From Agarophyton chilense (Eukaryota > Rhodophyta > Florideophyceae > Gracilariales > Gracilariaceae): a stretch of DNA of 64,000 bases. Positions 22,916 through 59,738 of this stretch are shown here, piece by piece. A program made the position numbers and the translations under genes. The stretch lies in the NCBI GenBank assembly GCA_030374765.1, contig JARGXX010000100.1, positions 124,001 to 188,000 of the forward strand, written 5' to 3'. Positions within the stretch are counted from its first letter, which is position 1, and each line of letters begins with the position of its first letter. Under the pieces are notes generated by a model, which was given only the letters and a program-made list of their open reading frames with translations, did no database searches and was not told the DNA's origin.

Positions 22916-24428
22916 CATCTCGCGATAGGCAACCTTCCGTCTTACGTGGTCAATCTAACTACGTCTTATGACGATCTCGACAACCCTCCGTTTCAGCAGA
23001 CTTCCGCGCCCCCTAGAGGTTCCGCTCCAATCTCCGGAACTGTTCCTTTTGCCGCAATCGGCTTCCAGTCCTGGTCCTGCATACTTTTCCTCCACAGCAG
23101 CTGTTCTGCAAGCTGCGTCCTCCTCCGTACAGAGGTTCCCACATTACGCGGACTTCGTCGGCCTAAACCCCCTGCAGCACTCTGCCCTATACGCGCGAGC
23201 ACCTTGGTTTTTCGCAGCGGCGGTCCGCGACGAAGCTCTGATGAATCAGTATGTGGTCGCCGGTCACCTTCCCGATGGTATCCATGGCATGCGTTATTTA
23301 CAACAGATTGGTTGAGCCCTTGCGCCGTCCCAAACAATGCAATCAGTCTCTTTGGAAACGAAAGCTTGCTCAAGGCGCGCGAACGATTCACCCGTCTGGT
23401 GTACCAGCGATTACGCCGCATTCTTAGCTTGGTGCATCTCAATGAGGCTTTGGATGTCCAAAGGTGGCACGGTGTTCGTAAAGTATCCAACGGGGCCCTC
23501 TGTACCGACAGTTCTCAACTACGCGCGTAACTCCGCTATGTCTGCAAACGAGATAATTCGTATTGGGAATTCCCCCGGTGGGAACGCCGTACCAGATATC
23601 AACTGGGATACTTGGTTCCATACCAGATGCTCGAAGTAGACCGAATTCGGTATAACTCGTGCGTCGGGCGCTACGTGCCGATTCCTCAATAGCGGCATGA
23701 GATCGAGAGTCCTCGTGGCTGTCCTGTGGAGCTCCCTCCTTCAATCACCTACATAGGTTCCTTACTCGCGAATGATCCGTTTTCTGGTTACTGGGTAGTC
23801 GTCTACAGTGAATTCATCGCGAAGATGGCCGTGTTCATCCTTTGGAATGTATACGACCCATATCGTTTGTGGTATATGAGCCCGATTCCTCGACAACTTG
23901 CGAGAGAACTCGATCTGTCGCTCGTCCTGGACTCACGTTCCATTCACGAAGAATTCTTGCGCTTGATGAATGTCATTGACCAGATTGACTGGACCCTTGG
24001 TCTTTCTGAACAGCAGGCTAGAGGAAGTCCTCGTCGCGACTACTCACCCGTGAGAACCGGTCCCGGCGGTGACTTTGTCTGGTACGACCCCTGGACTAAC
24101 CAGCATATCGACGGCGATCACGCCAGTGTTCTGCGGGAAACTCCGCAAGCAATGCCTCGAACCCCGCGGACTGGTTACATACACGAGCCAACTGCTCAGA
24201 ATGCAGACGCGTTCGTCGACGAGATGGAAGAAATCGATTACGACGAAGAGCCAGAAGAGGTTATCTTCGAAGATCCCGCTTTGGGTGAGAACGACGGCAT
24301 AGAGCCAGTAGTCCCTTCAGCGATGCAGAGCGCTGTACCTGAGCCTGTTTGACCAGCAGTGGATTCCCACGATGCCGAGCTTAGCAATCTGAGGCAGTTC
24401 CTCGAAGACGCTGGGATTCCTCCCTAAC
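22916..24428 (+). pseudogene. E3 antisense ORF (aORF family), several breaks
   Basis: This plus-strand ORF lies between the 3' LTR and pol and is homologous to the aORFs of E4 and E5. Shared blocks in order: LYARAPWF...AVRDEALMNQYV, NAISLFGNESLLKARERF then LVYQRLRR, LVPYQMLEVDRIR, VELPPSITYIGS...NDPFSGYWVVVYSEFIAKMAVF, YRLWYMSP, GDFVWYDPW, and a C-terminal LRQFLEDAGIPP. The blocks fall in two frames (shifts near 23,050 and 23,300), with a TAG near 23,690 and a stop at 24350-24352 before the last block. The acidic stretch VDEMEEIDYDEEPEEV resembles the acidic linker of E5. No known domain is recognised. Confidence 0.75.
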
Positions 24429-24565
24429 TTGTTCAAGGAAATCGACAGTAGATGCTGAATCTCTTGCGCTCCTCGATTGGAATCAACTCGGATAACCCGA
24501 ATACCTACCTTTTTTGCCTGAAGGCACTGTAACAAACCGACTAACGGTAGTTTTGAGATAACCAA

Positions 24566-24571
24566 AATAAA
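24566..24571 (+). terminator. Poly(A) signal for E3 antisense ORF
   Basis: AATAAA on the plus strand lies downstream of the aORF and before the convergent pol end, in a context (ATAACCAAAATAAAAC) resembling that at E4 (ATACCAATAAAAC). Confidence 0.55.
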
Positions 24572-24792
24572 ACGCTTTGATCTTCTGCAACTTCTTTGCT
24601 TCTTCTTCTCTCTGCGAGACCTCTGCTCTTCTTGCTTCACTCATCCCTTCTTGTGGACCTCTACTTCATTCTTCCTGCTTCTGGAGTTACTTTATACTTC
24701 TGTAGGGGTCAGATTCGATCAGGCTCTTCGGACGCAACCCAATCGATGAGAGCGTCATCAATGATGTGTGGGACATCGAGTTTTGCACGTCG

Positions 24793-27700
24793 TCAGTACG
24801 CGAGCACGTGTGATCGAGCTAGATTGCGTATGGGCTCCCATGTATCGTCTTCGTGTTGATACCTATATCAAAGCACTTTAAACAGTAAACTGTTGTCCTT
24901 TGCATGCCATCCACAATCTAGAATGCGTTTGATGATGTATTCCATCTCCTCAGTTGCGGACTCCTCAGTCGGGGTGACACTTTTGTGAACAGGTTCCGTA
25001 GCGTTCGCTATAGCGTTTGACATCGTGTCATCACTTTTTGTTGTCTTATCCACATCCGGGGTTCTCAAAGGCAGTCGTCTGGTTTTCCTATATATTTCTG
25101 GTCTGGCCGGTGCTTCCAACTTCCTTTTCGGTTTTTCCGAATCTTGCCGCAAGAACGCGACTTCAGTTGCCACTGTACGCCTTAGGCTTGCCTCTTTGGG
25201 CTTTTTCTATTCCCAATTTAAGGTGTCCGGATGTTCTGGGGGTGGACCCAAATGTTCGGTATCTTCCGCGAATGGGTCAGCCGATACAGTCATACTGTCT
25301 CCATGCGGCGTCTCCACAACTGAGGTGTCCCTTGTGGACTTCCTCTTTTCTTGGGACCTGCTGCGCTCCTCAGGGAGAGTTACGCTCTTCAATCCGTCAT
25401 GCATAATGGGCTTGCTGATCTCAGCTTCGGTTCCTTCTGAATCTACGCCAAATGGCGATTCTGTTCTGTCATCAGGACTCCCTGTAGAGCCTTCACGGTT
25501 TCTGATACGTGAGGTTTCATCCTCAATTTCTTTCGCGTCCGCAGCGTGGTCTGAGGGAGGTGCTGCAGTTCGCTGCGCGCGCACAGTGCGGATCGCCGTG
25601 TCTTCTCTAACTGCTACAGTGGGAGCTATGAATATGTCATGGGCCGATGCGCCGTTTGTCGCAAAACTGTTGTTAAGCTCTGTAAGTCGGATCTCCGAAC
25701 TCTTTTTACCACGTGGCAGTTTTGGTACTACTTTGGCCTGCGGCGTTATGTCCGCAAGCTCCTGCACAACTAGTGGCTGTGGCGGCTCCTGCACGTCAAC
25801 ATCTCCACGGATGGACTCCTTTCGCTGTACGTCAGCTTCTCGATCTGGCGCACCAACTACTCGGTCTCGAGAAATGCACTCCACCTCAGTACCTCTCCGT
25901 ATTGTCACGGTATATTGGTCGAATTTGACAACTTCATGCTGTCCTGTAGCGATCGGCGCTAACTTATGACGGCGTTTCTGTTTCTTGTCCTCTCCGGTCT
26001 TCCGGCTATCTTTCCTTTCCACTCTCAAGAAAACGTGTCCTCCCACTCGGATATCACGGAGTGCCCGTCGCATTGACGCGTCATAATTACGCTTGTAGCG
26101 CGCTTGGGCCTTTCCAATCTCTTTTGCAGCCTGGTTGGTGCGTTTGCGCAACTCAATCCTCCAGCGTAGGTGAAACTGAGCCGGCGTCGGAATTGACTCT
26201 TCTTCGCTTCGGTCCGAATCTACCTTGATTGGCAAATCCGCTTGTCGGTGAGATATTACCAATTCAAAGGGTGTTAGCTTCGTCGTCAAATGCACTTGCG
26301 TATTGTACGCGTAGCAAAGCGTGTCTGTATACAGATCCCATTCCTCCGGGTGTTCTTCGATGTAGTGCCGAATTGCGGCGAGTAGTGTACGGTTGTACCG
26401 TTCCACCTGCCTGTTACATTGCGGATGATACGTCGTGGTGAACACGTTCTGAACTCCAATTATCCTACATATATCTTGAAAGAAGCGTGCCCTGAATTGC
26501 TTGCCAATATCTGAGAGCAGAGTATCTAGTGGTCCGTAGTAATAAACCCAATGGTAGATAAACGCTTGTGATGTCACGGAAGCAGTAATCCGTTTCAGCG
26601 GAACAGTCTTAACCAGCTTAGAGAGGCGATCAGATATTAACAGAAGGTATCTGTTTCCCCGCTTCGAGCGGATCAATTCCCCAAGTATGTCAATACAAAC
26701 ATACTGTAGAGGTGCGATTGCTGGGAATAACTTCAGGGGCTTCTTCTTTTTCCAGAGCTTCACTCTATTCCTCGCGCAAGTTACGCCCATCTTAGCTGTT
26801 GCATGACAATACATTGCCAAACTTGACCAATAAAAGTCCTTTCTGAAGGTTAGGTAAAGCTTCGTACCTCCTGGATGAACACAAATTTGCGAATAATGTG
26901 CCAAATGCAGGATTCTGCTCTTGAGAGCGTGTGGTATCAGGATTTGCTCACATGATTCAACAGGTCGGACAAAGATTCCTCGATCGTCGAGTCGAAAAGG
27001 CAACACCTCCTCCCCGTTAAAACGAGAGCGGATAGCCGCGCAGAAGGCATCTGTGACTTGTTCAGGTAATACCTCTTCCAGAGAAATTCGTTCGAGTTGA
27101 TCTTCTGGATCAGTCTCCGTAGTCTGCGCTACCAGTAACTCTATTTGACAATTCTCTTCTTCTAGATCTTCTAGTTCTTCTTCTTTCAATATCAAATTTT
27201 CAGCTACCAAACATGGTATCTCATCATCAATTTTTAATTGGGTTTCTCCCAAGGTCTCGAGTTGCGATAACGCGTCAGTGTGTACGTTTGCAGTTCTCTT
27301 CTCGTAGTTGATTGTGAAATCAAATTCTGAAAGGCGCAGATGCCATTGCATTAAGCGTCCCGACGCGTCAGCAATCGACATGAGCCATATGAGGCATGAG
27401 TGATCGATATTGACCGTAGATTGAACACCCTGTAAGTAAGGTCTGAGGGTCGTTAGAGCCCAAACCATAGCAAGGCATTCCTTTTCTGACACAGAGTAGT
27501 TCTTTTCTGCCTGGTGCAATGTTCTCGACCAGTATCCAATAGGATGTCGTATGCCGTCTTCGTGCGTTTGAAAAAGGGCACACCCAGTCTGATAATCGCT
27601 AACGTCCGTATCGACGGAGTAAGGGAGATCAATTTTCGGAAGAGATAACGCAGGAGCTGTGGTGAGCACGTGTTTTAGCTTTGCGATAGCTTCCGCTTCG

Positions 27701-27849
27701 GCCTCTCCGAATTCCTTCAATTGAACTGGTTGTCTCTTCTTCAATAAAGCATTAAGTGGTGCAGCGATGTGCGAGTAGCGCGGCACAAATCGTCTGTAGA
27801 CGTTACAAAGTCCGAGAAAGGATCTCAATTGAGTCTGCGTTAACGGAAG
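24793..27849 (-). pseudogene. E3 pol, 3' part: RNase H, integrase, chromodomain
   Basis: This continues the E3 pol frame after the E4 insertion, whose junction falls within the RT connection region (…KPP then LTQTQLRSFLGL). RNase H (SVDTDVSDYQTGCALFQ) is followed by the integrase zinc finger, the DDE core (CIDILG, LSDIGKQF and RQVERYNRT around the D, D and E residues), a GQHEVV region in place of GPY/F and a long charged linker. It ends in a chromodomain (EYIIKRILDCG...DDTWEPI) at ~24793-24970. In-frame stops are TAG at 25207-25209 and TGA at 24868-24870; the latter replaces the conserved Trp of the chromodomain. The catalytic core is otherwise complete. Confidence 0.9.
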
Positions 27850-28565
27850 TGTAGTATCCGCTCTAACGGAGAGAGCAGACACCTGCGACAGCGTTCGGGC
27901 TGCCGATGGGTCCCTTGAGGCGAAGGAAAAAGGGTGGTAGAGCTACAACACCAGCGAGCTGGAAGTGGGGTGTAAAACCACTACTCGCCAGCGAGGGTGA
28001 ACAGTGCAACTGTAAAACGTTGATGGAACGTAGGTACGAGACGGCTCGTGAAGTGGTTGGGGGCTGACTATCTATTAAAGCTCGTCCGGATCTCCGGTTA
28101 AAGGATCCTAAGCGAGGAACAGAATAGTCATGATGCCCATGTTTTCTCCTTTACTTGGAGTCGGCGCTCACCTCTGGTACACTATATACTGCGTACCAGG
28201 GTGAGTGCCCAAATAAATATATAAATAATACCCAGTGGTCAGCCACTTAGCCAAACCACTGTATGGGTATGGTCCCTAATGGACGTCTAGCTAGAAAGGG
28301 TAGTAAAGCCCTCCACGTGGATCGCCACTACATGCGCCGTTGCGAATATGGCATTCCCCTAGGAAGGGTGGCAACTATGCGCGCGCCGTGGTAAGCCACT
28401 CGACCCATGACGCCACGTGTTCCACTAAGACGTTCTGCCTCTAGGCATCCTATGCGGGATACCGCTTCATATCACAATGCCGATGATAACACTCACTCAT
28501 AAGTTCCAACCGCGACTTCGCGAAAACCCAACCTATCGGATTCCCCGGCATAGTAGAATACTACA
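27850..28565 (-). repeat. E4 3' LTR (716 bp)
   Basis: It is TGTAGTATCC...GAATACTACA, a good terminal inverted repeat, and matches 36860-37575. The following plus-strand CACCTCCCTCG is the polypurine tract (GAGGGAGGTG) of the minus-strand element. Confidence 0.95.
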
Positions 28566-28733
28566 CACCTCCCTCGATAGGCGCGAACCATGGGGGACGC
28601 AAAAAGCTTTTACACGCAGTCGGAACAGTGTTCCGGGTACTCATCGTTATCACGAATTCCTCGCCGCCCGACCAACTTTTACAGTTCTCAACAGCATTCC
28701 GTTCCTCACCGCTCTTCAGCTTGATCTCTCGCG

Positions 28734-30323
28734 ATGGATCCGAACGCCAGGTCCAACCCGTTCCAGCCTTCCTCTGAGGATGTGCCTTCTGGGGCTCCGT
28801 CCAACACTGCTGGTTATGCGTGGCAGCCTACTGCTCAACTCGGTCCATACCGTTCGTTCCCCACACCGTACACTAGATTCCTGTCGGTACAGTTACCGCA
28901 CCCTGCGGATTTCTATGGACGAGATCCTCTCGACAACGTTGAACTTTTCGCGCGAGCGCCCTGGTTTGATCCAGTTGCTATCCGCGATGATGCGTTGATA
29001 CAACAGTATTTACACGGTTGGTACTTCCCTGACGGTATTCCGAAACACGCGATTCATAGCGACGATTGGGCGAGCCATATTGCTTTGCCAGACAACGCGA
29101 TTGCGCGATATTCAATGGAAACCTTGTCCGAAGCCCGTACGCGCTTCACCAAGCTGATTTACCAGCGTCTTCACCGATTCATCAGTATGGTTCTCCTCCC
29201 GCAGGACTGGGAACTAGATACCTAGAAAGCCCGTACCAACGGTGAAGGTTACTCGTATATCGAGACACTCGTTGAAGTCGATGTTAGCGGTTTGCGCGGT
29301 GTGCGCGGTGTGCGTGATGCAGCTCTCTGCTTTCAGCAACCTCATCTCCGTGCGGAGTTCCGCTTCCTTCGAAAGCGTGATATTTCCTATTGGGATTATT
29401 TCCGTTGAGAACGTCGTACTCGATCACGTTAGGGCTATTTGGTGCCGTATCAAATGATCGAGATTGAACGCATCCGGCGGAACGCGAGCTACGGGCACTA
29501 CATCGGTATTCCGGAGCATTGGGCGGCGATCGAGAGTCCTCGTCGTTGCCCTGTGGAGCTCCCACCGGCGATCTCCTACATCGGGTGCGCGTTGGTTAAC
29601 GACCCGTTCTCTGGATATTGGACGGTGGTTTATACCGAGTTTATCGCCAAGATGGCCGTTTTCCTCCTGTGGGATGCTTATGATGCCTTCAGAGTTTGGT
29701 ACATGTTGCCCACAGCGCGAAAGTATGCGAGAGAACTCGATCTTTCCCTTGTCCTGAGATCCGGTGCGAACCATGCTGAATTCCTCCATCTTGTGGATTT
29801 TATCGACAGTGTCGATTGCTCTGGAGTGCCAGCTGATCAATCCGCTCGCGGAACCCGTGCAAGGTACCACGACCATTCTCCTGGATGAACAGCAAGTGCT
29901 GGAGATTTCGTTTGGTACGACCCCTGGAAGCGCCAGTTGATCACCTCCGAGCAGGCTCGCTTTCTTCGGGAGAACCCGCGTGACATGCCACCGAACCAGC
30001 TTACTGGATACGTGTACGATGCTACTCCATCTGAGAACGGAGAGGAACCGTATGAGGAAGCGCCGGGAGCTGAGGCTGAACTCGGTTACGAGGACGAGCG
30101 AGAGCTGGTAGGCGTAGCGACTTCCGTCGATCAATCCGCAGCTGCGGGAGTTGCTCAAGAGTACTTTCATGGGTTTACCCAACAACAGAGTGCAGTGCTG
30201 GTCGAAGATCTAGGCTTGGATCCGCTGAGGCAGTTCCTTATAGATGCGGGTTTTCCCGTGGATCAAGTTCAGGGTGATCGCGCACAGCTTATTGCAAACC
30301 TGCGTGATCGCACGTCTCTTTGA
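28734..30323 (+). pseudogene. E4 antisense ORF (aORF family), one frame with four stops
   Basis: A single plus-strand frame of 529 codons starts at ATG 28734 (MDPNARSNPF), 168 bp after the 3' LTR, and ends at 30323. It has no frameshift but four in-frame stops: TAG 29223-29225, TGA 29406-29408, TAG 29430-29432, TGA 29886-29888. Aligned to E3 and E5 it shares LFARAPWFDPVAIRDDALIQ, ARTRFTKLIYQRLHRF, GYLVPYQMIEIERI, VELPPAISYIG, FSGYWTVVYTEF, FRVWYMLP, GDFVWYDPW and a C-terminal LRQFLIDAGFP...GDRAQLIANL. Predicted soluble: no signal peptide or membrane segment. Tryptophan and aromatic residues are frequent, and an acidic linker precedes the C-terminal block. The family is unrecognised. Confidence 0.8.
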
Positions 30324-30375
30324 TGATCCTAGAAAAGACTCCTATTCAACACCCTTGCGGTGGTATCTTGATACC

Positions 30376-30381
30376 AATAAA
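30376..30381 (+). terminator. Poly(A) signal for E4 antisense ORF
   Basis: AATAAA begins 53 bp after the aORF stop codon on the same strand. E5 has one at a similar distance. Confidence 0.6.
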
Positions 30382-30393
30382 ACTCCGGTGACT

Positions 30394-30702: not shown

Positions 30703-31550
30703 CTACGAACGGGGGATATGAGCTATAGGTTCCCACGTATCCGCTTCCGGAGGAAAACTGTACCAACGGACTCGATACAGTAATTCTATAGTATCTTCAT
30801 GCTCGCCATGTTGACATATGCGATCCATAACATATTCCTGGGCATTTCCCAATGCTTCCACTGTTGGCGCGAGACTCCTGTTAACAGGTTTGAAATGTCT
30901 TGGGGCTGACCTAAGCGTCTCTGTGTTAACAGTCTCAGCGTCGCTAAACGTTCGCTCGTCGACTAACTGTCGTTCTGCCCGCAGGGGCAGTGTACTCATT
31001 CCTTGACAACCTTTCTCAGATAAAGAGCTATCCTGTTTCCAGGTTCCATAGAAGCGTACATCTTGCTACTTCTCAATTCCATTCGTGGATGAACTTCCTT
31101 CGGTTTATCCGATTCTGACTGCTGTTGGGTTGACGATGGTGCTTGCACCACGACAGGAGGCGATACCTTTTCTTCTTCCAGCCCACGAGGGATGGGAGCC
31201 GATATCGGCGGAACAGCGAGTGGCGCGTCACCTGACCGTTCAGCCTGAAGCGGCAACGGCGCGTTTTCGCGTGCACTCGTTTCCAAGTCCTTGGGGCTAA
31301 AGTCCAAAACATCTTTCCTGCTTTCAGGTTCCATTTCTGTACTTACGGGTGTGCGCGTGCCACGGGGCGTATCTCGATACTTCGAGAAGTGGTCGGTGAT
31401 TACCAATAGGTAGCGATAACCTCGCCTTGAGCGAATCAATTCCCGTAGAATGTCAATACTGACGTATTGTAAAGGCGCTTTCGCCTGGATAACGTCATCG
31501 GTTTCCGCTTCCTGTAAAGCTTCACGCGATTCTTTGCACATGTTGTACAC
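30703..31550 (-). pseudogene. E4 pol C-terminal part: integrase start, linker, chromodomain
   Basis: After a frameshift near 31,500 the integrase core begins normally (VSIDILRELIRSRRGYRYLL, first catalytic Asp) but stops at ITDHFSK and runs straight into an unrelated charged linker. The segments carrying the second Asp and the Glu, present in E3 and E5, are absent. After another frameshift near 31,000 a chromodomain follows (EYVMDRICQHGEHEDTIELL then RVRWY and DTWEPI, ~30703-30840). This looks like an internal deletion removing most of the integrase, so this copy could move only with integrase supplied in trans. Confidence 0.8.
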
Positions 31551-33445
31551 AACCTCACTGTAGCATGGCAGTCCATTGCCAAAGTAGGCCAGAAAAAATC
31601 TCTTCTTAGAGTCATGAACAACTTCGTTCCTCCTGGATGACCAGACCGCCTGCTGTAGTGAGCCAGATGGAGTACTCGACTCTTCAAGACGTGTGGAATC
31701 ACGATTTGATCATGCTTTTCGACATTTCTTAACAGTATTCCTCGTGAATCGAGTGAAAAGTGGAGCTCCTCCCCCCCGTTAAGACGAGGGCGTATCGACG
31801 CACAAAACGTATCGGCGTGTTGCTCATTGAGGAGCTCAGTGTACGAGATTCGCTCAAGTTGAACTGAAGGGTCAGTGTCTGCTAATGCAAGAAACGGGTC
31901 TGCATTCGAATAATCCTCAAGGGTCTCTTGTTCCTCTTCTTCAAAAGATGTTGAATGGGTCTCCATGTAGAAGAAAGGTATCTCTTCATGGATTTCGCCT
32001 TGGGTTTCGCCCAGTGTTTTGAGTCGCGATAGCGCGTGAGCTTGGACACTGGCCAATCCCTTCTTATACTTCACTTCGATATCAAATTCAGAAAGGCGTA
32101 AGCGCCATCGTGTGAGACGAACAGACGGGTCTGAAATGGACAGTAACCATCGTAAAGACGAATGATCCGTGTTGACGGCAAAACGTTCTCCTTGGAGATA
32201 CGGTCGCAATGTGGTTAGAGCCCAAACGACTGCAAGGCATTCCTTTTCTTTCTTCTCAGCTGCGTTCAGCGATCTTGACCAGCAACCAGTGGGTTTGCGT
32301 TCACCATCAGCGTGTCTTTGAAAAAGGGCACACCCTATTTGGCACTCGCTAGAGTCGGTATCCACTGAGTATGGCAGGTTGGGGATGGGCAGCGCCATGA
32401 CTGGGGCTGTAATAATCTTTGTCTTCAGCATGTCGAACGCTTCCGCTTCAGCTTGTCTGAATTGTTCCAGCTGTACTGGTTGTCCTTTACGCAGCTTTGC
32501 GTTGAGCGGTGCCGCTATATGCGAGTATCGCGGCACGAATCGTCTGTAGACGTTGCACAAGCCGAGGAAAGAACGCAATTCCTTCTGTGTCGACGGAGGT
32601 TGTACTTCGCGGAGAGCCGCTGTTTGTGCCTCTTGAATGGCAAGCTGTCCCGGCTTGATCACATGTCCTAAGTACCGGACGGTGCCAGCGAACCATTCGC
32701 ATTTCTTGAACTTCAAGGTGATATCTGCGCTCTGTAGTGCTTTGAAGATCTCCTTGACATACCGTAAATGGCTTTCCACATCCGGGGAAAATATGATCAC
32801 ATCGTCCAAATAGACTAAACAAGTCTTCCACTTGTATCTTGAGAGCAAGATGTCTAGAGTACGCTGGAAAGTAGCCGGTGCATTCGTTAAGCCAAAGGGC
32901 ATCCTTTTGAAACGGTAGAGACCGGCGTGACACGCAAATGCGGTTTTATCTTGGTCTTCTTCCACTACAGGCACCTGCCAATAGCCAGAGTTGGCGTTCA
33001 ACGTGGTGAACACGTTTGCTTCTCCTACGCTGTCAATACATTCGTCCATTCGAGGCAACGGGTATGTATCTCGAACTGTAACTGCGTTCAGTTTTCGATA
33101 ATCGATACAGAATCGTAAAGAACCATCAGGTTTTGGAACCAGCACCACTGGTGAGGCCCAAGCAGATTGAGCTGCTTCGATTACTCCTTCTTCCAGCATT
33201 TTGCTGACATTCTCCCCCTCGATTTGGCGAGTTTGCGGTCCCGCTCTGTAGGGTGGTTGGGAGATGGGTCGTGACCCTGGGACCAAATCAATGTGTTGTT
33301 CCGTAGCGGAGATCTCTCCTAGTTTTTCACTCCACATGGATGTATACTTCTTCAGCATAGACCTGATCTTCGTTCTGTGGTGTTCCGACACATGTGCTAA
33401 GTCTAGCTCATCGACCAGGCTCTCTGGATCCTTTGCCGTTAGCAA
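31436..33445 (-). pseudogene. E4 reverse transcriptase, RNase H and integrase zinc finger
   Basis: This 669-codon frame covers RT (LRFCIDYRKLNAVTVRDTYP, FKRMPFGLTNAPATFQR, active site LVYLDDVIIFS at ~32800), the connection region (LRSFLGLCNVYRRFVP), RNase H (SVDTDSSECQIGCALFQ, then YLQGERFAVNTDHSSLRW) and the integrase HHCC finger (H...GHPGGTKL, CTTCAKNR). It copies element RNA into cDNA. The frame ends where the integrase core should begin, by a frameshift. Upstream in the same register are the linker (33497-33715) and protease (33989-34450), separated by several stops. Confidence 0.9.
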
Positions 33446-33496
33446 TTGATCTCCAGACGGAGTTTGCAGTTCTTCGTCTGTGTCACCGACATGGGT

Positions 33497-34491: not shown

Positions 34492-36644
34492 TTAGTTTTC
34501 CGGTTGCACCTGCTTATTCGCCTCAAAGGCGCCTCTTCCTACCGGGGTTCCGGGTTGTAACACTTCAGCATTCTGAGCAACCGGCTTGTCCGTCCGGCGC
34601 ATCGGTGTCTGAGAAAACCAACTTTTGGCTTTTGAATACATGCCCGCCGGTACGCGGCTTCTTTCCTCTTCTGAGAGTGCTTCATAATTCGTCATTATAC
34701 GACCCAGATCCTTTGCAGGAAGCGTGCATTCTGCACTCAAATGGTGTTGTCCTTAACATGAATAACATATCAAACCGTCACGACGGTTGGTCAACATAGG
34801 TTGTGAACGGTATGCCGTGCGAGTATCCGCCCATCCAGGTTTCCCGTTCTTAAAACCTCCTTGTGGAGGCATCGTGTAGGGACGGTTCATAGGGCGACGG
34901 CCCTCCATAGCCATTATAGCTTCCTCGTCCTGAGACTCCGAGTGTGGGGGATCCACTGTAGGTACAGAAGAGTCCGTATATTCCATTAAATGGACCGCCT
35001 CCTCATGCGAGTCACTCCCTTTGGGTGCCAACGACGAGTCTCGTGAGTGCACTGGAGATTCCAGATGTAGCAGTTTGCTGCGCTGAATAACTCTGGCGGA
35101 GATCTTCTCCTTACGCATTGAGTTTCCAAAAGCCACTGAACCACGAGGGCTACCACGTGCTCAGGCCGCGTCTCCTTCAGCTTTCGCAAACTGAACTAAC
35201 TCCAAAAAGGAGACTCTTCCATGTTTCTCTCGATATCGAGCTAACAACGACTTGATGCTCGGGTCCAGCCCGTCGATGTACAAGGTAATCTTTTCCTCCG
35301 TCGAGTGGACGTTCCCACAGCGTACTGAAGCTTTGTTAAGCCTTGAGCAGTACTCAGCTTCGCCCTCCCCAAACTTTTGGGTCACATCCCTTAGGTCCAG
35401 TATCACCTGACGTATCGCGTTTGAAGTCGCGTAACAGCGCAGCAAATACTGCACCGCCTCTGGCCATGAGGTAACGCCGCCTTCATCGGCTGTCAATGAT
35501 CCGCATACGGAATGATGTTGCTCTAAAGCAAAACCCTTCAGAAAGTGTGGTAAAGACACAAATGCCTGTGGTTCACTCATCTCTAGAGTGTCTGCCTCGC
35601 CAGCGAATCGAGTGAGAAACTCGATAACGAGAATGGGGTTTTCCCATCAATTGTTAAATCATTAAAGCCGATCTTCAATCGTTTGATGTGATCCTTCACC
35701 TTCGCGGTTTCGCGTCCTGAGCGCTTCTTTCTCTTCACCTTCAGACGGTAGTACCTGTAATTCAGGACCTTCCGATAAAGCGGATTCGTGCACGGGAGCA
35801 CCTTCAATCCTCTGTAAGGTGAGCCTTTTTTTCTCATTAACCACGAAGACGTGTTCTTCTTCCGAGATCGGAACCTTCGATGACCATCATCACTGTCGCC
35901 GTTATCTGACATATCTGAATCATCAAAATCATCAGTAATGGAAATGAAACCGTCCGTACTTGACGATTCATCACTCAAATCACGTGCCGACTTCCGCTTC
36001 TTACGTCGTGACTTCGACTTCTTCGAACGAGCTTACTTCAAAGGAGCTCCTTCCACTTCCAGCATGACTGGTTTAGCAGCAGTCTGCGCATGAACTGCCG
36101 CCTCCAGGTGTTCTAAACGAGGGTTAACTCGAGTGAGGACTTCCTCTACATCCACGGTTAAGCCGGGTAGCGCATCGGGCGTATTCCCGTACCTCTCCAG
36201 TAGATGGTTCAAATCCTCACGTAGTGTTTTCACTGATGCAGAGACCTGCTTCCCATCGTCTTGACGAACGAGTGCTTGATGTGCACTGCGTAATTGTTCG
36301 ACATTAGCGATAAGAGCAGCGATCTGCGATTCAAAGGCAACCATGCGCACACGCGAAGCGCTTGACTCAGACTTGAGACGACAAACTTCCCTGCGCAAAT
36401 CATCCTCTTCTTGAGTTCCTACGGCCTCAGGGTCAACTACCGCTTCTGTGGTGGACGCGACTGCCGCTGCCACAGAGACCAGTACATCCAAGAGATCTCG
36501 TTCATCATTCACCGAGCGTGAGCGCGACATCGCTTGACGATACAGCCGCTCTCCGGCTTCAACAGATCAGGCGAGCCTCGCTTTCGGGGGTGGTCCCGCA
36601 GGACCGGGGCGAGCAGTACTCGACTGGCTTCGGGTCTTCGGCAT
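34492..36644 (-). pseudogene. E4 gag with zinc knuckle
   Basis: Gag starts at ATG 36644 (MPKTRSQSS). It then shows a coiled-coil-like region (36033-36530: long heptad-rich stretch with LRREVCRLKSE), an acidic/basic low-complexity region, a conserved block RLKIGFNDLTIDGKTPFSL, the gag core (35161-35580: AVQYLLRCYATSNAIRQVIL, EYCSRLNKASVRC) and a CCHC zinc knuckle near 34715-34765 (CYSC then HHLSAEC) with a TAA inside it. It is in several frames with stops. It would form the virus-like particle and package RNA. The same blocks are found in E3 gag. Confidence 0.75.
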
Positions 36645-36859: not shown

Positions 36860-37575
36860 TGTAGTATCCGCTCTAACGGAGAGAGCAGACACCTGCGACA
36901 GCGTTCGGACTGCCGATGGGTCGCTTGCGTCGAAGGAAAAGGTGTGGGAGAGCTACAACACCAGCGAGCTAGAAGCAGGGTGTAAGGCCACTACTCTCCA
37001 GCGAGGTTGAACAGTGCAACTGTAAAACGTTGATGGAACGTAGGTACGAGACGGCTCGTGAAGTGGTTAGGGGCTGACTATCTATTATAGCTCGTCCGGA
37101 TCTCCGGTTAAGGAATCCTAAGCGAGGAACAGAATAGTCATGATGCCCATGTTTTCTCCTTTACTTAAAGTCGGCGCTCACCTCTGGTACACTATATACT
37201 GCGTACCAGGGTGAGTGCCCAAATAAATATATAAATAATACCCAGTGGTCAGCCACTTAGCCAAATCACTGTATGGGTATGGTCCCTAATGGACGTCTAG
37301 CTAGAAAGGGTAGTAAAGCCCTCCACGTGGATCGCCACTACATGCGCCGTTGCCAATATGGCATTCCCCTAGGAAGGGTGGCAACTATGCGCGCGCCGTG
37401 GTAAGCCACTCGACCCATGACGCCACGTGTTCCACTAAGACGTTCTGCCTCTAGGCATCCTATGCGGGATACAGCTTCATATCACAATGCTGATAATAAC
37501 ACTCACTCATGAGTTCCAACCGCGACTTCGCGAAAAACCAACCTATCGGATTCCCCGGCATATTAGAATACTACA
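36860..37575 (-). repeat. E4 5' LTR (716 bp)
   Basis: It matches 27850-28565. It is followed at 37576-37580 by GGAGG, the right target duplication with one mismatch to the left copy. Confidence 0.95.
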
Positions 37576-41645: not shown

Positions 41646-42011
41646 GGCAGCAAAATTATCACTGGCAATCCAGATAACAAACGCGAACCATGCAAACACA
41701 ATTTCTCAACGAAAACAATACACATCGCGATCGACACAACCAATATCGACAACGATAGAAACTTCTAGCAAATAGAACCAATAAACAGTGAAGATTCACA
41801 ACTAAAACTCGGGTTGACCGACGAACGTGGCGAACAGTTAGATCCAGTTCCAAATGTCTTCTGACAATGTAGATTCCGGGACGACGGTTCAAGTTTCAGT
41901 TCACTGATCTCAGTACAACGCACGGAAATACAACGAGGATCATTCAAACGTGCGAAATACGATATTTCCGGTCCAAGCGACCAATATTCCACACACAGGT
42001 GTACTTCTTTA

Positions 42012-42026: not shown

Positions 42027-42031
42027 ATTTA

Positions 42032-42798
42032 TGTGGTATTCAACTGAAGACTGTAGAGGTCTTGGTGCAGTGGGTATCCACAGAAATAAACGCGAAGAGC
42101 GGATGTCGCTTTGCGAGCGACGGTTCTTACATAAGAAGAGAGTGTGCGGAAAGCAGCCAGGTGTGCCTGAACAATGGGGAAAATACATGTACTCACGAAG
42201 CGGATGTCCAGATGGGGCTGTACGTAATGCACACGAGATCGGCTCGACAACCCTTGTGACAACACAAATAACCAGTTGACAGTAGGGAAATCAACACACA
42301 CACACACAGAAAGCTGTAGAAAAAGAGCGGTAAACGCGCAACAGTAGAGGGTATTCTCGGAACAAGAGCTATAGCTCAGAACGGTTAAGAACCAATACTA
42401 TAGGTACCCCTTTGTGGTAAACCACTTTGGGATTTCTAGGACTCAGCAAGATGGTGTTTAGGTTGGTTGTTGGTTGGTCTTCGCCGTCCTCACCTGGGCC
42501 TTGTGCCGTTTAATGTGCCAAGAGGCAAAGCAAGTTCTGTACAGTAATGCATACACGTGGCGTGCCACTACACAAATATCTAAATAATACAAAATAAAAT
42601 ATTTGGTGATGGAACCTTACAGTGCACACTAAATACAGTATTTCCTAATGATATTTCTCCTGTCGCAATCTTTCCATGACGTAATTTTTCTCATATCTTC
42701 TCGTAGTCGAGTATAGCTCAAGCAATAGCTTATGAATGCCGTATCGCGACTTCGTAGTATTTCGATCGGTCTAACTCAGGTGCATTCAGAATGCTACA
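42032..42798 (-). repeat. E3 5' LTR (767 bp)
   Basis: It matches 21971-22738 and is followed by the CGTAA target duplication at 42799-42803. Confidence 0.93.
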
Positions 42799-49160: not shown

Positions 49161-49163
49161 CTA

Positions 49164-52281: not shown

Positions 52282-52288
52282 GGGAGGG

Positions 52289-52506: not shown

Positions 52507-52715
52507 TGTAAACAGTTTTAATAACTATCGCACAACTATGATCGCCTCTCCGACCGAGTTCATACTACCTGCAGATAGAGCGCATTGCTTAAATAGACTA
52601 GCGCGGCAAGTAATAAACGGTTGCTACAAATTCAACTACAAACATTAACGGCTGAATCGCCAACAGTCATCACTAATACTGATTCATATTCTCTCTCTTT
52701 TCTTTTCAGAGACTC
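52507..52715 (-). repeat. Probable copia C 3' LTR and polypurine tract
   Basis: The stretch starts TGTAAACAG where homology to the copia B LTR ends. A pyrimidine-rich run at 52688-52711 (TTCTCTCTCTTTTC...) is the polypurine tract of a minus-strand element, so the LTR probably covers ~52507-52685. The other LTR lies outside the window, so the limits are inferred. Confidence 0.45.
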
Positions 52716-55700
52716 TTACCCAAGATACTTCTCAGAGGATCGAACATGAGCTTGAGTGAAATCTTCGGACAGCTGACCTTCGTACAACATTAACTGCACC
52801 GGCTTAGTCATAGGGCTATCTCTCTTTGTCAAAGGGTCTGCTGGATTGATTCTACCAGGTATCCAAATCATTTGATTAACATTATGCGTTTCAAACTCGT
52901 AGCCGATAACGGCTACATCTGCGCGAATGCTTTTGTCACTAGGGCAGTGACAAGTTGATAGACAATCATACAGATCCTTTGAATCGACAGAAACCATAAC
53001 ATCAACATCTATGTTAAGAAGAGTTGAGTAAGCGCCTGCCAAAAGATTGGCTTCGTCAATAGCATATCCAGCTGCTAATATTTCCGCTGCTCCGATTGAC
53101 TTGACAGGACGTCTGGACTTGTTTGAATTCCGGAGAAGAGTATGAAATATAGAATTCCTCTCAAATTCTCCAATGAGGAGTCCAAGAATGAAACCAAGTT
53201 GTCCACATTCATTTGATCGACTTGCATCTGAAAGCACCAAAATCGATATTCTATGCGACTTGTCATCGACAGGACGTTTGAACAAAGAAGAACTTCCAAG
53301 CTTTTTCAAAACTTTGAGACTGTTAATTTGGATAATCAAGTCACTTACGCATGGTTTTCCACTTCTTTGCCGTAAGAAGCTCGAGTAAAAGGAGCAGAAT
53401 GGACTAGCCACAATTCCTATCCATCCAATGGAACCAATAAGAGATCTAAATGCAGAAAGTTCTATTGCATTCAAAGGCTCTTCAGATTGACGGCGTCGAA
53501 ATCGGTCCAGAGGATAGGATTTTAGTGCATTAAGTTTCTCGTCAGCGTGGATAAGAATGGAAAAATCTTCATCCTGTACAATCGTTAAACCATAAAACAA
53601 GAATTGTCCAAGACCATACACTATAGTACCAAGTTTGAATCTTTCGTTAATTTTTTGAACAGTAGATTTGACAACTTCGCAAGGTCCGGCAATGAGAATA
53701 TCATCGACCACCTTGATAGCAAGAACTTGAATGTCGTTGCTGGAACCACTTTTCATATAGAACAACTGTGGGATATATGGCAACTGCAAAAATCCAACCT
53801 CATAAAAGAAAGAATCACTGCAATCTTGCCACTTTGCACTTGCGTTAGCCAAACCATAAGCAGCGGTTAGAAGAAGCCAGTAGAACGACCTGTTTCTACA
53901 TTCAAGAGGAGGTACAACATAAACATCTCGTTCAGCACTTCCTGTTTGTAAAAAAGCAGACTCCACATCAATCTTGGCCAATTTCCACTTGAAAATGCTG
54001 GTCATAGAAAGTAAAACACGTATTCCAAGAGGAGGACAAACTGCAGAGTCGCTTTTGACCATATCTTTTTCCTTATCTTTGTTACCATGTGGTGCAATTC
54101 TAGCTTTCAACATCAGACTTTTATCATCCAGGATCTTGACTTTATACAGTACATGACTTGATATGATGTTGGCATCGGCAGGTATTTTAGATACATGCAC
54201 CTCCTTGACGATCTTCTTGAAGTTTTTCTCTTCAGTGTGGTATGCATTTTGTGTCACAAACTGAGGCAAACCTTGAGTCTGATGAAGCAGAAATTCTTTC
54301 GAGTTGAAACGATTAAAGTATTCGCGAAGAGCATTTCGTTCGGAACTAGATAGCTCTAAGCCTGGTAGAAGTTGTACTTTGTTTGTTGAAAGCTGAGATT
54401 CATCAATCAAGAATTTCCATTGCTCATCTTGGAGTTTCAATGTTTCGACTTCTCCGTCCACATAATCTACACGAAATTTGTCGGTCTCATTGTCATAATC
54501 TCCGACAGTACCAGGATAAAATGTATCATCAATAGGCCAAAAAACTTCGATTTTGTCGCCCACATTTGGCATGACAACATCGTTGATGTTGGAATCATCT
54601 TCCTCCGCATCTCGAGATGGAGGAAGAACATTTTCTTCGAAAGCTGTTTCATCAGAACTCAAATGTTCTATGTTGAGTTTCAAATCAGAATCTAGCATAT
54701 CGATCGATTCACGAACAGAATTAGCCAGCACATTGTCCAAAATAGCTGGACGAATGTCTTCCAGGGCTGCCGAAAAAGTCTTTCCATTTTTTCCAGGTAA
54801 ACAAACCGAACGATTAGTATGATCATAACATAAAACAAGTAAAGCTTTTGACCATTTACCACGTTTCTGATGGCATTGCTTGACAAAAACACCGACCATA
54901 TCACCGACATGAACATGTTTGTCCTGAATACTTTTGGAGTTGAGAATCAGTTTCAGCTTCCGTTTGGCTTTAAGAGCGTTCTGTGCCGCAAAGAGATCTT
55001 CCGGAATTTGATTAGGCCTGACATCTGGATGAATCGGATATGAGTGTCCTTTTGCAAGCTCATAGGCAGATAGAGTATTGTTTCCATACAAAACGTTGGA
55101 TACACGAAACATCTGCTGAACCAACGTAGAGCTTTCCGGCTGTGGGTTAGAATTCTTCAAGCGCAAGTAAATATCTCTCAGTATTCTGTGTTTCGACTCA
55201 ATTACATTCTTATTGTGTCGTCTTGGAGGAATAGCTTGGGATAAGATGCCGAGACGTTTTAGATAGCTCTTGAATTCCTCGCAATTAAAGCCTGGATCGT
55301 AGAGAACTTTGGTTGGCTGCCAAAATTGAGATATCCACAAAGTGTCGAAAGCGGAAACTGCATGAGAAATCTTTGTATCTGGAACAACACACCCAACTGA
55401 GTAACGTGTAACAGAATCCATTGCGTGAAAGACTGGAATTTCATCGAGAAAGAAGTGGTCGACACAAACAACTTCATTAGAATTCCTGGACATAGAACTT
55501 AAGGAAACTTTCCTCACTTGCTGAGGAAGAGATTTTTTGCGACATTTTGAACACGTTTCAATGACCGATCCAAGATACTTTTGAACATCATTATTCCAAA
55601 CATTGTTTCTTTCAAGTAAAAGCTTAATATCAGAAAAAGACGAATGACCACAAACGTGCTGATGAACTTTATCCACAATGGCCTTCCTTTTAGCCCATGA

Positions 55701-57032
55701 AAGACCTTTAGCTTCATCACTGATTTGTGCGGTAGCACAAAAGAAAACGGAGCTAGTCATTAAACTTGACCCAGCAGTATCTCTCAGAAAGCGTTCATAC
55801 GGGACAAAACAATGAAAATCGTGATTCACGAGAGAAACAGTATCTAAACAACCATCACCCAGGTCGAACTGCAAACTGTTTCCACCCATACGGATAATGT
55901 TACAAAATCGAGTAACATTTCTCCCAATCACCCATTGTGAAGACCCGCTGATGAGAAGATGACGTATCTTCACAATTACTCCATCATAGGATAAAACATC
56001 AAGATTGATGGAACCCAAAATCTTTCTGGATGAACTACGATGATTTCTAGATCCATATTGCCGGTAAGGGCGATTTTTAATAGCTTCGGGGAGAGGAAGA
56101 AGCTCACCGGTCCAGGTTGGTAGGATGACTGGTTGGATTAGAAGGAACTCATCCAATCTCATACCACTGTACAGAGCACCATCATCTAGAAGTGGTCCGA
56201 TACAATTAAAAGAACTCTCTTCGGCACCTGAAATTTGAACCATGTTAAATGATAGTGTGTTCTGTCTTATAGTGGATGCGGTATCAGATGATGTTTTACC
56301 AGAAGCATTTTCTGGACATTCTTTAGCCCAATGACCGATTTTTTTTCATTTATGGCACCAAGACTTTGACTTCAAATCATCCAGTTGTTCCTTTGAAAGT
56401 GTTTTCTTTCCCTGTGACTTCCGAGCACCGTGCGTTCTTCCAGAATTGGCCTGAATGACAGAGTGTAAATTTTGTTCCTTCATATCCTTAGGCTTGTCGC
56501 ATTGTCTCACGACAGAAGAAACTGCTTCATAGGTTAGCGATTTCAAGAAATCAGAGGTAGAAGAAGACGTATTAAGTTTAGAATCTTTCGGGGTGGCACC
56601 TGCGAGAATAGATATTCTTTGATTTCCATCTACAATTGCTTTTGCCATTAACATGAAAGCAACCAAGGAATCAGGAAACATATATGAACCAGGTAAAGCA
56701 TGACCGTTAAACTTGGCCACCTGAGCTTCAAATATTTGCTCAAAGTTACGAAACGACTCATTTGTGTTTCGCTTGGTATTCATAAGATCCAAAAAATCTG
56801 AGTAGACTTCATTAACAACGGCCAAAGCATCACGTTTGTAAATTGCATTTACACTGGAGTCCGCGCCATCTTTGCTCTTAATTATATCATCTGGAATGTT
56901 CAAGCACAAACTTTTCGCTCTCCCGTACAATTGAGAAAGCAACATTATACCACGGAGATTAACAGAATTTTTGTTACTGTTGTTGGCTGGGAGTTCGTCA
57001 TGAAAATCTTGCCACAACATAACTGCTCGAGC
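52716..57032 (-). pseudogene. Copia C gag-pol with Tudor-like domain, cut by E5
   Basis: A single frame from the E5 junction (57032) to the stop at 52716 (~1,438 codons) has only one internal stop, TGA 56346-56348, where the second Cys of the CCHC knuckle should be (CHK-stop-KKIGHWAKEC). Order: gag (56346-57020), knuckle, protease (LLDDGALYSG), integrase zinc finger (HVCGH...CSKC) and core (VCVDHFFLDE, LYDPGFN, NVIESKHR), then a ~50-residue block (~54410-54570; VGDKIEVFWPIDDTFYPG, VDYVDGEVETL) that looks like a Tudor/agenet-type fold, then RT (VESAFLQTG, VVDDILIAGP) and RNase H ending NPADPLTK. It is the best-preserved copia frame in the window. The 5' part lies beyond E5. Confidence 0.88.
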
Positions 57033-57896
57033 TGTAGGACAATGCCCCCAAGGGGGAAAACCTACGATGACGTCCGGATCTTCCTCTCACGAGGTAACAG
57101 GCGCGGTAGAGCCCTCTCAGGGATCGGCGCGTAATTCCGGGTGTAAGCCAGAGCCGAACCGTCGCGACGGGCGCAGGGAGGCTGAAAGAAGCCGAGAATA
57201 TCCGCCGAAGCGGTGCTTTCGTATCCTCTGAGGAGGCAAAACCCACGAGAGTGGGGAGCACGACACGTGTCAGTGCGAGCCGCAAGAGCGGGAATTGCCC
57301 AATGAAGGGGAGGAAAAGGGAAGGAAAATGGGAACGGAGGCAAGAGGGCGAGGTTGACCACGAGTCGCAAGAGGGGACTCGGGAATACCCGGCACTGCCG
57401 GGTGTAGCAAACCGTATACACGGGCGGAACCACGAAAGTGGGAATAGATACCCAACACACGAAGGCTGCTTGAACGTCCAAGGGGGTTGGGAAGCCGTGC
57501 ACCACGGGAAATCCCTCCGTAAGGAGTTGTATATCCGCGCAGGCGGTTCGACCCAGAGCCAAGATCTGGAAGACCAAGATCACCCTTGTTGGGGAGACTT
57601 TACTGGACCGGCGGCCGCGAGGCCGGCGGCCTAAGTACTGTAGTCACCGTAGAATAGAATAAATAAAGTCTATCCTAAATAGCTAAATGTCCGTCTAACA
57701 AAGGGGCCAATCTGGCGGCCACGTGTCGCGCGGGCGCTGCGGCCACGTGTATGGCACCCGGTCCCGCCGGTGCATCACTGGCGTTCCGGCCATCGCCGTG
57801 AAAACGGATTACTCCTACTCATAACGAGGTTGCACGCCGGAGGCTCCAGAAAAAACTTAAGTCCTCAAAAACCTCCCTGGAGGACGTTGCTCTTCA
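57033..57896 (-). repeat. E5 3' LTR (about 864 bp), rich in short hairpins
   Basis: The left edge is set by interruption of the copia C frame. The right edge is inferred from the C-run TACCCCCCCC at 57897, which matches the polypurine-tract position in E3. The sequence is full of short inverted repeats with tiny loops (CCCCCAAGGGGG, CCTCTGAGGAGG, CCGGCACTGCCGG, CCGGTCCCGCCGG, and a longer one around GGCGGCCGCGAGGCCGGCGG). No second LTR is available to confirm the length. Confidence 0.55.
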
Positions 57897-58065
57897 TACC
57901 CCCCCCTTCAGACAGGGCGAACACCTCGAAGAGGAAGTCGGCATGGCAGCTCGTCATGATAAGAGCGCGTCCGACACCGGGTCTCCGGAAACCAACACAC
58001 CTTCACCAAGGATCCCACGCAAGCTCTTCGCATCCTATTCCAACCACACCACACCAACACGCACC

Positions 58066-59738
58066 ATGTCCAACCCCGACCGTCATAACACATCCGCGAC
58101 TCCCGCCCTTGGTGGTTCCACCGGCTTCCGGTCCGCGCCCCACCCTGGGGATGTTACCGACCGAACTCCGGCCGTCAACCTCGCGTACGAAGACCGCCGT
58201 ATTGGCGCTCGCTTTCGCGGACAGGCGGACCCACTGCAGTGGCCGACCTACGACGCCCTTGTGGGTGCAAATCCGAGAACTCGGCATGGCTCCGCGATGT
58301 TGCGGTATGTGCCTTGGTTTCACCCATTGGCTGTCCGCGACGAGGATTTGATCCAATCCTACACCGATAATTCGGAGATGCTCTCGGGCGACCTGCCCGG
58401 CGTGGTGACCATGTCCTGGGATTGGCGTAATCGTATCGCCATCCCGGTACACCACATACTCCGCCGACGCGGTGAATCCTCTGCGGAGGCTCAAGCCGCG
58501 CTTGTGCGAATCGCTTATCTCAGGCACCATCGGGCGCCTTTCGAGTTCCCGATACCGCCAGAGGTCGAATTCGACGTCCAACTTTACCGCACTCGCGGGG
58601 AAATGTCGTACTGTGACCGTCTTAACGGATTGGAAACCCTCGCTTGGAGGGGCACACCGATCGCTCGGCAAGAAGCCCTTTGCTGGGTACGACCGATTCT
58701 TCGGGCAGAGTTCCGCTACCAACCGCGGCAGTCGCGCTCGAACTTCCTTCAGAACTTCATCCGCGATGAGCGGCGTTGGCGGGCCCGGACCGGGTATTTC
58801 GTACCGTGTACCAGAACACGGAGATTGAGCGCATCGCGCCTGCTCACCGACGTGGTCGGTACGTCAGTCTCCCAGACTGGTGGTCCTCCTTGGAGGCCTG
58901 CTATGGTTGCTTCATTGAGCTGCCCCCAGTCTTCACTTATGTAGGGTTGTCGTTCTTGAACGATCCCCAGTCGGGGTGGTGGTCCGTCGTGGTAAGCGAA
59001 TGGGCCGTCCGCACTGCGGCTTTTATCCTCGCTGAGGCGTACGACCAATACCGATTGTGGTACGTGCCACCGCGTGTGCGGGCTGCGATCCGTCGTTTGG
59101 ACATGCGCATCCCCCTCGGGGGCGAGGCGAACGAAGAAGAGATGCTGGGCCTCCTCGACTTTGTGGAGCGGGTCCAGTGGGATGAGGTCCCGCTGGAGAA
59201 CTCCCAACGCATTCAACCGCGTCGCGGGTCTGGCCCCAAACTCGGGAGGAATACCGCGCTAGCGGGGGATTTCGTCTACTTCGACCCCTGGGAGTACCAC
59301 GAGATCAGCCGCGAGGAAGCGGAAGCCAACCGGCATGCGCCGCGTGAAGTCCCGGCCGACCACCCGCGAGGGTATGTCGACTCGAGCGACTATTACCGCG
59401 ACTATGCGGATGGTGACCCGATGGTCGACAACGAACCGGAGGATCCGGGTTACGCTCCGATGGAGGATGACGGGTCCGGCGAGGCCGGTGAGGAGTCCGT
59501 TGAATACGGTGGTGCGGCTCCATCCGGGGCTGCTGATGCCGTGCGAACGGATTCCTATCCGACTCCATCGGTGGCGGGCCCGCCCGCAACCGTCGCTGGC
59601 GCAGAGCGGGGCGAGGTCATCGCGCGCTTCCTTCGGGCGGTGGGGCTTCGCCCTTCCGAGATCTCGGGTGATGTGGCCGCCATGCGGGATGCCTTAGCCA
59701 ACCGCCTGGGCGGGGGTCCACCTCATGCGGAGGAATGA
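58066..59738 (+). pseudogene. E5 antisense ORF (aORF family), one frameshift
   Basis: ATG 58066 (MSNPDRHNTS, aligned to MDPNARSN of E4; the frame is open from 57943) leads a ~557-codon plus-strand ORF with one indel near 58,810 (between GYFVP and YQNTEIERI). Conserved blocks: LRYVPWFHPLAVRDEDLIQSY, AALVRIAYLRHHR, ELPPVFTYVG, NDPQSGWWSVVVSEW, YRLWYVPP, GDFVYFDPWEY, an acidic linker and IARFLRAVGLRPSEISGD near the end. About a third of residues match E3/E4 in the best blocks, by eye. No signal peptide or membrane segment. Unrecognised family. It has the best coding integrity of the three copies. Confidence 0.8.

What the first reader, a model, noticed from the sequence alone, without database searches (positions are those of the whole stretch)
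22916..59738. A conserved antisense ORF family in three ambisense Ty3 chromovirus-like elements
E3, E4 and E5 each carry, between pol and the 3' LTR and on the opposite strand, a homologous ORF of ~530-560 codons (22916-24428, 28734-30323, 58066-59738). The blocks align in the same order: ARAPWF...RDE/DALIQ, the YQRL/YLRHH block, GYxVPYQ...IERI, ELPPxxxYxG, NDPxSGxW, YRxWYxxP, GDFVxxDPW and a C-terminal FLxxxGxP block. E5 is far diverged from E3/E4 in DNA, yet the protein blocks persist, which suggests selection on the protein. Each is followed by AATAAA on its own strand (24566, 30376, 59798). Precedent: antisense ORFs are known in some plant Ty3 elements (Grande, Retand, RIRE2); I do not recognise this family.
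Basis: partly seen in the sequence, partly recalled or inferred. Interest (0 to 1): 0.9.

Follow-up and report, generated by a model that had tools for sequence, protein, structure and literature searches.

The report
Antisense gene in red-algal retrotransposons
Several families of jumping genes in what is likely a red-seaweed genome carry a conserved extra gene on the strand opposite to their usual genes; its protein matches no family in the libraries searched, is predicted to have a fold without a match among solved structures, and likely helps to control the element.

Summary
The window lies in an unnamed 79.8 Mb genome; its nearest named protein matches are from the red alga Agarophyton chilense. 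E3-, E4- and E5-type genes each have at least 40 copies there, a fourth family at least 77. Copies that are open as they stand read 558, 608, 550 and 575-618 codons. Between families 47-49% (E3/E4) or 31-37% of residues match, and differences concentrate at third codon positions. In nearly all loci examined the gene lies between a Ty3-type pol and an LTR, convergent with pol; in the window it starts 168-186 nt inside the 3' LTR edge. Relatives occur in Gracilariopsis chorda and Gracilaria domingensis. No convincing Pfam, NCBIfam or PDB relative was found, nor the TRP28 domain of plant Retand antisense genes. AlphaFold2 gives a confident 376-residue core (pLDDT 89, pTM 0.89) without a convincing Foldseek match in the PDB. 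The architecture is known from flowering plants (Grande, Retand, RIRE2); the protein family, and perhaps its fold, appear new. Its role, most likely regulation of the element, is inferred.

The parts
22925..24428 (+). E3 antisense gene (broken: start position reads ATA, three in-frame stops, frame changes); homology to an open E3-type copy runs on to 24529
21970..22738 (-). E3 3' LTR (element sense is minus); the polypyrimidine stretch that follows (22739 on, TATCCCCCCCC) is the PPT read on the other strand
42031..42798 (-). E3 5' LTR (93% to the 3' LTR)
25207..27882 (-). E3 pol: RNase H, integrase zinc domain and core
   Evidence: Pfam
27850..28565 (-). E4 3' LTR, PPT directly after (CACCTCCCTC on +)
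28734..30323 (+). E4 antisense gene (broken: four in-frame stops); two open copies elsewhere read 608 codons, of which the 48 before MDPN may be leader
30376..30381 (+). AATAAA 52 nt after the E4 antisense stop; present at 49-52 nt in 34 of 36 E4-type loci examined (not all independent)
30996..33445 (-). E4 pol: RT, RNase H, integrase zinc domain (31436-33445); start of the integrase core seen weakly at 30996-31550
36860..37575 (-). E4 5' LTR (96% to the 3' LTR)
57040..57896 (-). E5 3' LTR, inner part (outer edge not determined); inner edge at about 57896, followed by PPT (ACCCCCCCCTTC on +)
58066..59738 (+). E5 antisense gene (broken by one frame change); two open copies elsewhere read 550 codons
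59798..59803 (+). AATAAA after the E5 antisense stop, kept in L059 and L060
60071..64000 (-). E5 pol (RT/RNase H 62843-64000, integrase 61718-62755, C-terminal part with a sub-cut-off chromodomain match 60071-61675); convergent with the antisense gene

Best explanation
These Ty3-type retrotransposons carry a second gene, read from the opposite strand between pol and the 3' LTR, whose protein is under purifying selection between families; it is likely transcribed from a promoter in or beside the 3' LTR and would act as a nuclear regulator of the element. Shown: position, strand, convergent arrangement with pol, 168-186 nt from the LTR edge to the start codon position in the three window elements, open copies, between-family constraint, and relatives named Gracilariopsis chorda and Gracilaria domingensis. 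Predicted: one compact, mostly helical core of 376 residues and a C-terminal two-helix motif after an acidic, poorly ordered linker. Inferred: the short leader leaves little room except the 3' LTR edge for the start of transcription, so each inserted copy would make a pol-strand RNA from the 5' LTR and the antisense mRNA from the 3' LTR side. The protein would return to the nucleus and modulate transcription, silencing or integration of its own family, as proposed for the antisense proteins of Grande and Retand.
For: Family: 14, 12 and 7 rows in three searches (26 distinct proteins; 35-87% identical to the E4 query). Copies, all lower bounds: 79 E4-type matches (23 without an internal stop by my count of the table), 40 E3-type, 40 E5-type, 77 of a fourth type (54 without a stop). 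Constraint. Placement: LTR upstream in 36 of 38 and pol downstream in 36 of 38 E4-type loci; 17 and 19 of 20 E3-type loci (the window itself and overlapping loci included). A fourth-family copy has the same layout, with a part 54% identical to E5's chromodomain end on the opposite strand. Tree: E5 with G. chorda P0021 and G. domingensis P0022 (100/100), E3/E4 with G. chorda P0019 (100/99; P0019 fills only half the columns). Fold: pLDDT 89.1, pTM 0.89. No hydrophobic N-terminus and no clear membrane stretch: highest 19-residue hydropathy 1.07-1.86 in the 8 of 13 proteins scored before the script stopped, always the same helix inside the core. Precedent: Grande gene23 is nuclear and has its own antisense promoter; HTLV has an antisense promoter inside the 3' LTR (passages of PMC7264820). 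Retand TRP28 proteins are predicted to bind DNA (passages and Discussion of PMC11963269).
Against: No transcript, promoter or localisation data were available. No DNA-binding domain was found: the C-terminal motif matches Ish1 only at E 0.09 in 1 of 19 members. The protein is acidic (pI 5.1-6.1) in 7 of the 8 members scored. A TATA-like stretch was seen before the fourth family's gene and a weaker one in the E3 leader; the E4 and E5 leaders show none by eye. AATAAA is absent in both fourth-family copies and in 5 of 19 E3-type loci. Within-family copies show no excess of synonymous variants: N/S 2.38, 2.17 and 2.32 for variants in 1, 2-3 and >=4 copies in E4; 2.61, 2.35 and 1.45 in E3. pS is saturated, and codon alignments guided by protein lean towards matching first and second positions.
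Confidence: 0.45

Rival explanations
1. The protein is a particle or assembly component (a capsid-, matrix- or Env-like part) that happens to be made from the antisense strand.
For: It is large and mostly helical. No Pfam gag was recognised in the three pol-strand pieces upstream of pol that were scanned.
Against: No capsid or Env match in the PDB by sequence or fold; the viral structure library was searched only with the poor first model. No membrane segment outside the core helix in 8 proteins. Pol-strand ORFs upstream of pol remain as gag candidates (40506-41699, 36033-36530). A separate antisense mRNA is an odd way to make a bulk structural part.
Confidence: 0.2
2. It is an anti-silencing factor that removes or blocks host methylation or small-RNA silencing of its own family, as VANC proteins do for Arabidopsis VANDAL transposons (recalled).
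For: It evolves faster than pol (31-49% residue identity between families against about 49-66% for the longer pol matches), as expected of a factor in conflict with its host. Several families are abundant with many open copies.
Against: No convincing Pfam domain of any kind was found. No methylation or small-RNA data.
Confidence: 0.2
3. A captured host gene with a host function is carried as passenger; some hits in other algae are host genes.
For: G. chorda BWQ96_03215 lies on a 445 kb contig whose surroundings I could not read.
Against: Deeply split families keep the gene in the same place. The matches listed in the own genome are multi-copy (capped lists). No cellular family matches.
Confidence: 0.1
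4. The ORF is incidental, and only the antisense RNA or the DNA is conserved.
For: Antisense RNAs of LTR elements without coding capacity are known (micropia, in passages of PMC7264820). The window copies are broken, and within-family comparison shows no selection.
Against: Third-position excess between families, stops in every other frame of eight open copies, and protein-level conservation at about one third identity with a confident predicted fold.
Confidence: 0.03

Closest known systems
Retand lineage of plant Gypsy elements (TRP28 antisense ORF)
   Same: A large antisense gene between pol and the 3' LTR in nearly all members, conserved across species (PMC11963269, passages and Discussion seen).
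   Different: TRP28 (PF04195) is not found in the family by scans of 19 members, nor above its cut-off in the own genome. Retand is a non-chromovirus lineage of flowering plants; these elements are from a likely red alga, and two of the four families show a chromodomain-like integrase end.
Maize Grande gene23 / rice RIRE2 antisense ORFs
   Same: Antisense, between pol and the 3' LTR; gene23 is transcribed from its own upstream promoter and is nuclear (PMC7264820, passages seen).
   Different: No sequence of theirs was compared directly here; no transcript is known for the algal genes.
HTLV-1 HBZ and similar antisense retroviral genes
   Same: Gene on the antisense strand; HTLV has an antisense promoter inside the 3' LTR (passages of PMC7264820 and PMC11963269).
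   Different: HBZ is a bZIP protein (recalled); no bZIP match here. Virus against endogenous transposon.
Env-like sense ORFs of plant LTR retrotransposons
   Same: Extra gene between pol and the 3' LTR.
   Different: Opposite strand, and no membrane segment outside the folded core in the 8 proteins scored.

Membership tests
Ty3/Gypsy LTR retrotransposon | Two LTRs, PPT next to the 3' LTR | tested here: met
   E3 and E4 LTR pairs and PPTs; E5 inner LTR edge and PPT; E5's 5' LTR lies outside the window and was not read
Ty3/Gypsy LTR retrotransposon | RT - RNase H - integrase order in pol | tested here: met
   Pfam order in E4 and E5 pieces, RNase H - integrase in E3; E3 RT by tblastn
Chromovirus | Chromodomain at the integrase C-terminus | tested here: inconclusive
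   E5: PF00385 E 2.6e-4, 21.3 bits, below its 25.1 cut-off; fourth family 54-58% identical over that part; none found in E3 or E4 pieces
Chromovirus | RT groups with chromoviruses in a tree | not tested
Retand-type antisense-ORF elements | Antisense ORF between pol and the 3' LTR | tested here: met
Retand-type antisense-ORF elements | TRP28 (PF04195) domain in that ORF | tested here: not met
   no PF04195 match at E<=1 in 19 members; in the own genome one sub-cut-off match (E 0.05), not at a place listed for the antisense genes
Env-like accessory gene | Sense orientation and transmembrane segments | tested here: not met
   antisense; hydropathy peak is a core helix in 8 of 8 proteins scored
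HBZ-like antisense gene | Transcription start in the 3' LTR | not testable with these tools
   no transcript data
HBZ-like antisense gene | bZIP domain | tested here: not met
   no bZIP family among the Pfam matches

The most novel reading that the evidence does not exclude
A new class of retrotransposon accessory protein with a new fold: an antisense-encoded regulator kept by at least four Ty3-type families since before the Gracilariopsis and Gracilaria/Agarophyton lineages split, showing that ambisense retrotransposons with two-way gene expression arose independently outside flowering plants.
Probability: 0.4. Interest if true: 0.8.

Novelty: new variant of a known kind. Interest (0 to 1): 0.63.

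Why it matters
Antisense genes of plant retrotransposons are an open puzzle: conserved, of unknown origin and role (PMC7264820, PMC11963269, passages). A protein without detectable relation to TRP28 in the same antisense place in a distant lineage suggests that the place itself matters (a gene driven from the 3' LTR side), and gives a second case with many open copies and a confidently predicted core that can be expressed and solved. It also shows that some unnamed predicted proteins of red-algal genomes belong to a family carried by transposons, which helps annotation.

Tried and rejected
A pol-strand coding frame as the source of conservation: rejected, every other frame has 2-31 stops in eight open copies. 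Known families: Pfam, NCBIfam (one match at E 0.04 in 1 of 28), PDB by sequence (best E 0.9 and 0.57) and TRP28 gave nothing convincing; E3_binding (best E 0.03, 6 of 19) and Ish1 (E 0.09, 1 of 19) are weak and unproven. Viral contigs: 38 stretches matched a pattern, none a relative. A first fold of a full-length relative was poor in a conserved stretch (pLDDT 64.7) and its matches meaningless. Trimming to the core and adding relatives gave pLDDT 89.1, still without a convincing PDB match; the viral library was searched with the poor model only. I first took match ends near 58048 or 58162 for the E5 LTR edge; three 5' LTR ends showed it at about 57896. The E3 spacing printed (182) used inexact edges; the figure in this report (186) is re-read. 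The allele-frequency test within families gave no signal.
Full report
What was checked. The three stated regions were translated, compared with all other parts of the window and placed in their elements. E4 is a 9.7 kb Ty3-type element on the minus strand with LTRs at 27850-28565 and 36860-37575 (96% identical), nested in E3, whose LTRs are 21970-22738 and 42031-42798 (93%). E5 is cut by the window end; its inner 3' LTR edge was found at about 57896 by comparing three 5' LTR ends from other copies with one 3' LTR end and the window. A polypyrimidine stretch (the PPT on the other strand) follows each of the three edges. Pol pieces with RNase H and integrase domains, and RT in E4 and E5, lie on the minus strand; E3's RT stretch was found by tblastn. 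The antisense genes are therefore between pol and the 3' LTR and convergent with pol.

The window copies are broken. E4 has four internal in-frame stops; E3 has a lost start, three internal stops in the stated frame and frame changes; E5 has one frame change. So the ORFs 'of 530-560 codons' are not open here, but the coding trace is right.

The family is real. The E4 protein, read with X at stops, finds 14 proteins (best E 5e-290), six of them unnamed products of Agarophyton chilense. A profile search lists 12 rows, five of them new, and an open E5 copy finds 7 more: 26 distinct proteins in all, including Gracilariopsis chorda BWQ96_08668, BWQ96_03215 and BWQ96_10156 and Gracilaria domingensis FGB62_50g12. 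In each search only about 8,000 candidates were scored. The organisms of the rows from 'ena' and 'lgn' are not given. A. chilense is in the order Gracilariales.

Copies. All counts are lower bounds because only the best candidates are scored. E4-type: 79 protein matches, of which 23 show no internal stop by my count of the table. E3-type: 40 long DNA matches at 85-100%, the window itself included. E5-type: 40 at 96-100%, itself included. A fourth family, found with G. chorda BWQ96_10156 as query: 77 matches at 41-44%, 54 without a stop; by eye its places differ from the others. A search with P0008 returned 66 matches, by eye E4-type with a few E3-type places. Among the 58 loci read (the window itself and some overlapping loci included), six have an antisense ATG ORF of at least 480 codons: five E4-type (two of 608 codons, the others shorter at one end) and one E3-type (558). 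Two E5-type copies fetched have 550 codons; two fourth-family copies 618 and 575, which differ in which upstream ATG is open.

Selection. Within the E4 family the ten pairs of open copies have dN/dS 0.54-1.17, and the allele-frequency survey shows no excess of synonymous change among shared variants: copies decay after insertion, and this test gives no support. Some of the 37 E4 loci in that survey are the same place fetched twice (for example L003 and L026, L004 and L013). Between families the picture is clear. In the five E4/E3 pairs pN is 0.31-0.34 and pS 0.72-0.76; dN/dS comes out at 0.08-0.16 in four and undefined in one, with dS saturated. Differences by codon position 1/2/3 are 196/173/347 for E4/E3, 236/245/359 for E4/E5 and 258/241/361 for E3/E5, and 257/217/353 for E5/fourth family. 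A caution: codon alignments guided by protein favour matches at positions 1 and 2, and the p values treat sites as independent. The pol-strand frame that shares the wobble position carries 19-31 stops in each of eight open copies, so the pattern is not a shadow of a pol-strand gene. Residue identity between families is 47-49% for E3/E4 and 31-37% for the rest, lower than that of pol (49-66% over the blastp and tblastn matches, leaving out one 35-residue match at 74%).

Placement. In 36 of 38 E4-type loci an LTR lies upstream in the same relative orientation and in 36 of 38 the pol end lies downstream; for E3-type 17 and 19 of 20. In the two fourth-family copies read, a part 54-58% identical to the E5 chromodomain end lies on the opposite strand downstream; in the one whose upstream flank was fetched, an LTR-like end with a PPT lies upstream. 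From LTR edge to start codon position there are about 186 nt (E3), 168 nt (E4) and 169 nt (E5) (re-read); in open E4 copies the frame also has an ATG 144 nt further upstream. E1, another minus-strand Ty3-type pol in the window, is only 34-41% identical to E3-E5, and no relative of the gene lies near it, so the gene is not common to all Ty3-type elements here. A tree of 25 proteins puts E5 with G. chorda and G. domingensis proteins (100/100) and E3/E4 with another, half-filled G. chorda protein (100/99): the split is older than these lineages, unless elements moved between species. The tree is rooted at the midpoint for drawing only.

How it most likely works. Shown steps: a selected, antisense, LTR-proximal gene. 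Inferred steps: transcription from the 3' LTR side, nuclear action, control of the family's own expression or integration. The choice rests on position (as in Grande, Retand and HTLV, from the passages cited), on the lack of membrane or capsid signs, and on faster evolution than pol. Rivals are a particle component and an anti-silencing factor.

Literature. Ten searches listed no paper whose title or abstract start points to antisense ORFs of red-algal LTR elements; I did not open the listed algal papers, and the library lacks most subscription journals. I saw passages of PMC7264820 and passages plus the Discussion of PMC11963269; all others were seen as listings only.

Noticed in passing
L065:425-2281, L066:125-1852 (G000:C109, C79): A fourth antisense-gene family, not in the window, with at least 77 matches, 54 of them without a stop, same ambisense layout with a chromodomain-like pol end; no AATAAA in the 300 nt after the stop.
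   Followed up: partly
G000:C68:3138304, 3147501, 3156698: Three E5-type antisense genes spaced exactly 9197 bp apart: perhaps a tandem LTR-retrotransposon array sharing LTRs.
   Followed up: no
G000: C99:2251191/2261681, C113:828298/838833, C71:111460/121992 against C6:662506/670431, C71:1307898/1315820: E5 LTR pieces on one strand lie about 10.5 kb or about 7.9 kb apart, which may mean a long and a short (perhaps non-autonomous) form.
   Followed up: no
window 52716-56243 (-): A 1175-codon Copia-type pol with a sub-cut-off Tudor-like match (PF21743, 23.6 bits, E 4e-5) between integrase and RT.
   Followed up: no
window 3108-3268 / 9423-9586 and 5449-9501 (-): A Ty3-type pol ORF of 1350 codons whose first codons overlap one of two direct repeats of 161-164 nt (98% identical), perhaps the short LTRs of a young element; no relative of the antisense gene there.
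   Followed up: no
G000:C117:1234739-1236391 (-) and 1237970-1239622 (+): Two E5-type antisense genes head to head with LTR matches between them, probably an inverted pair of insertions.
   Followed up: no
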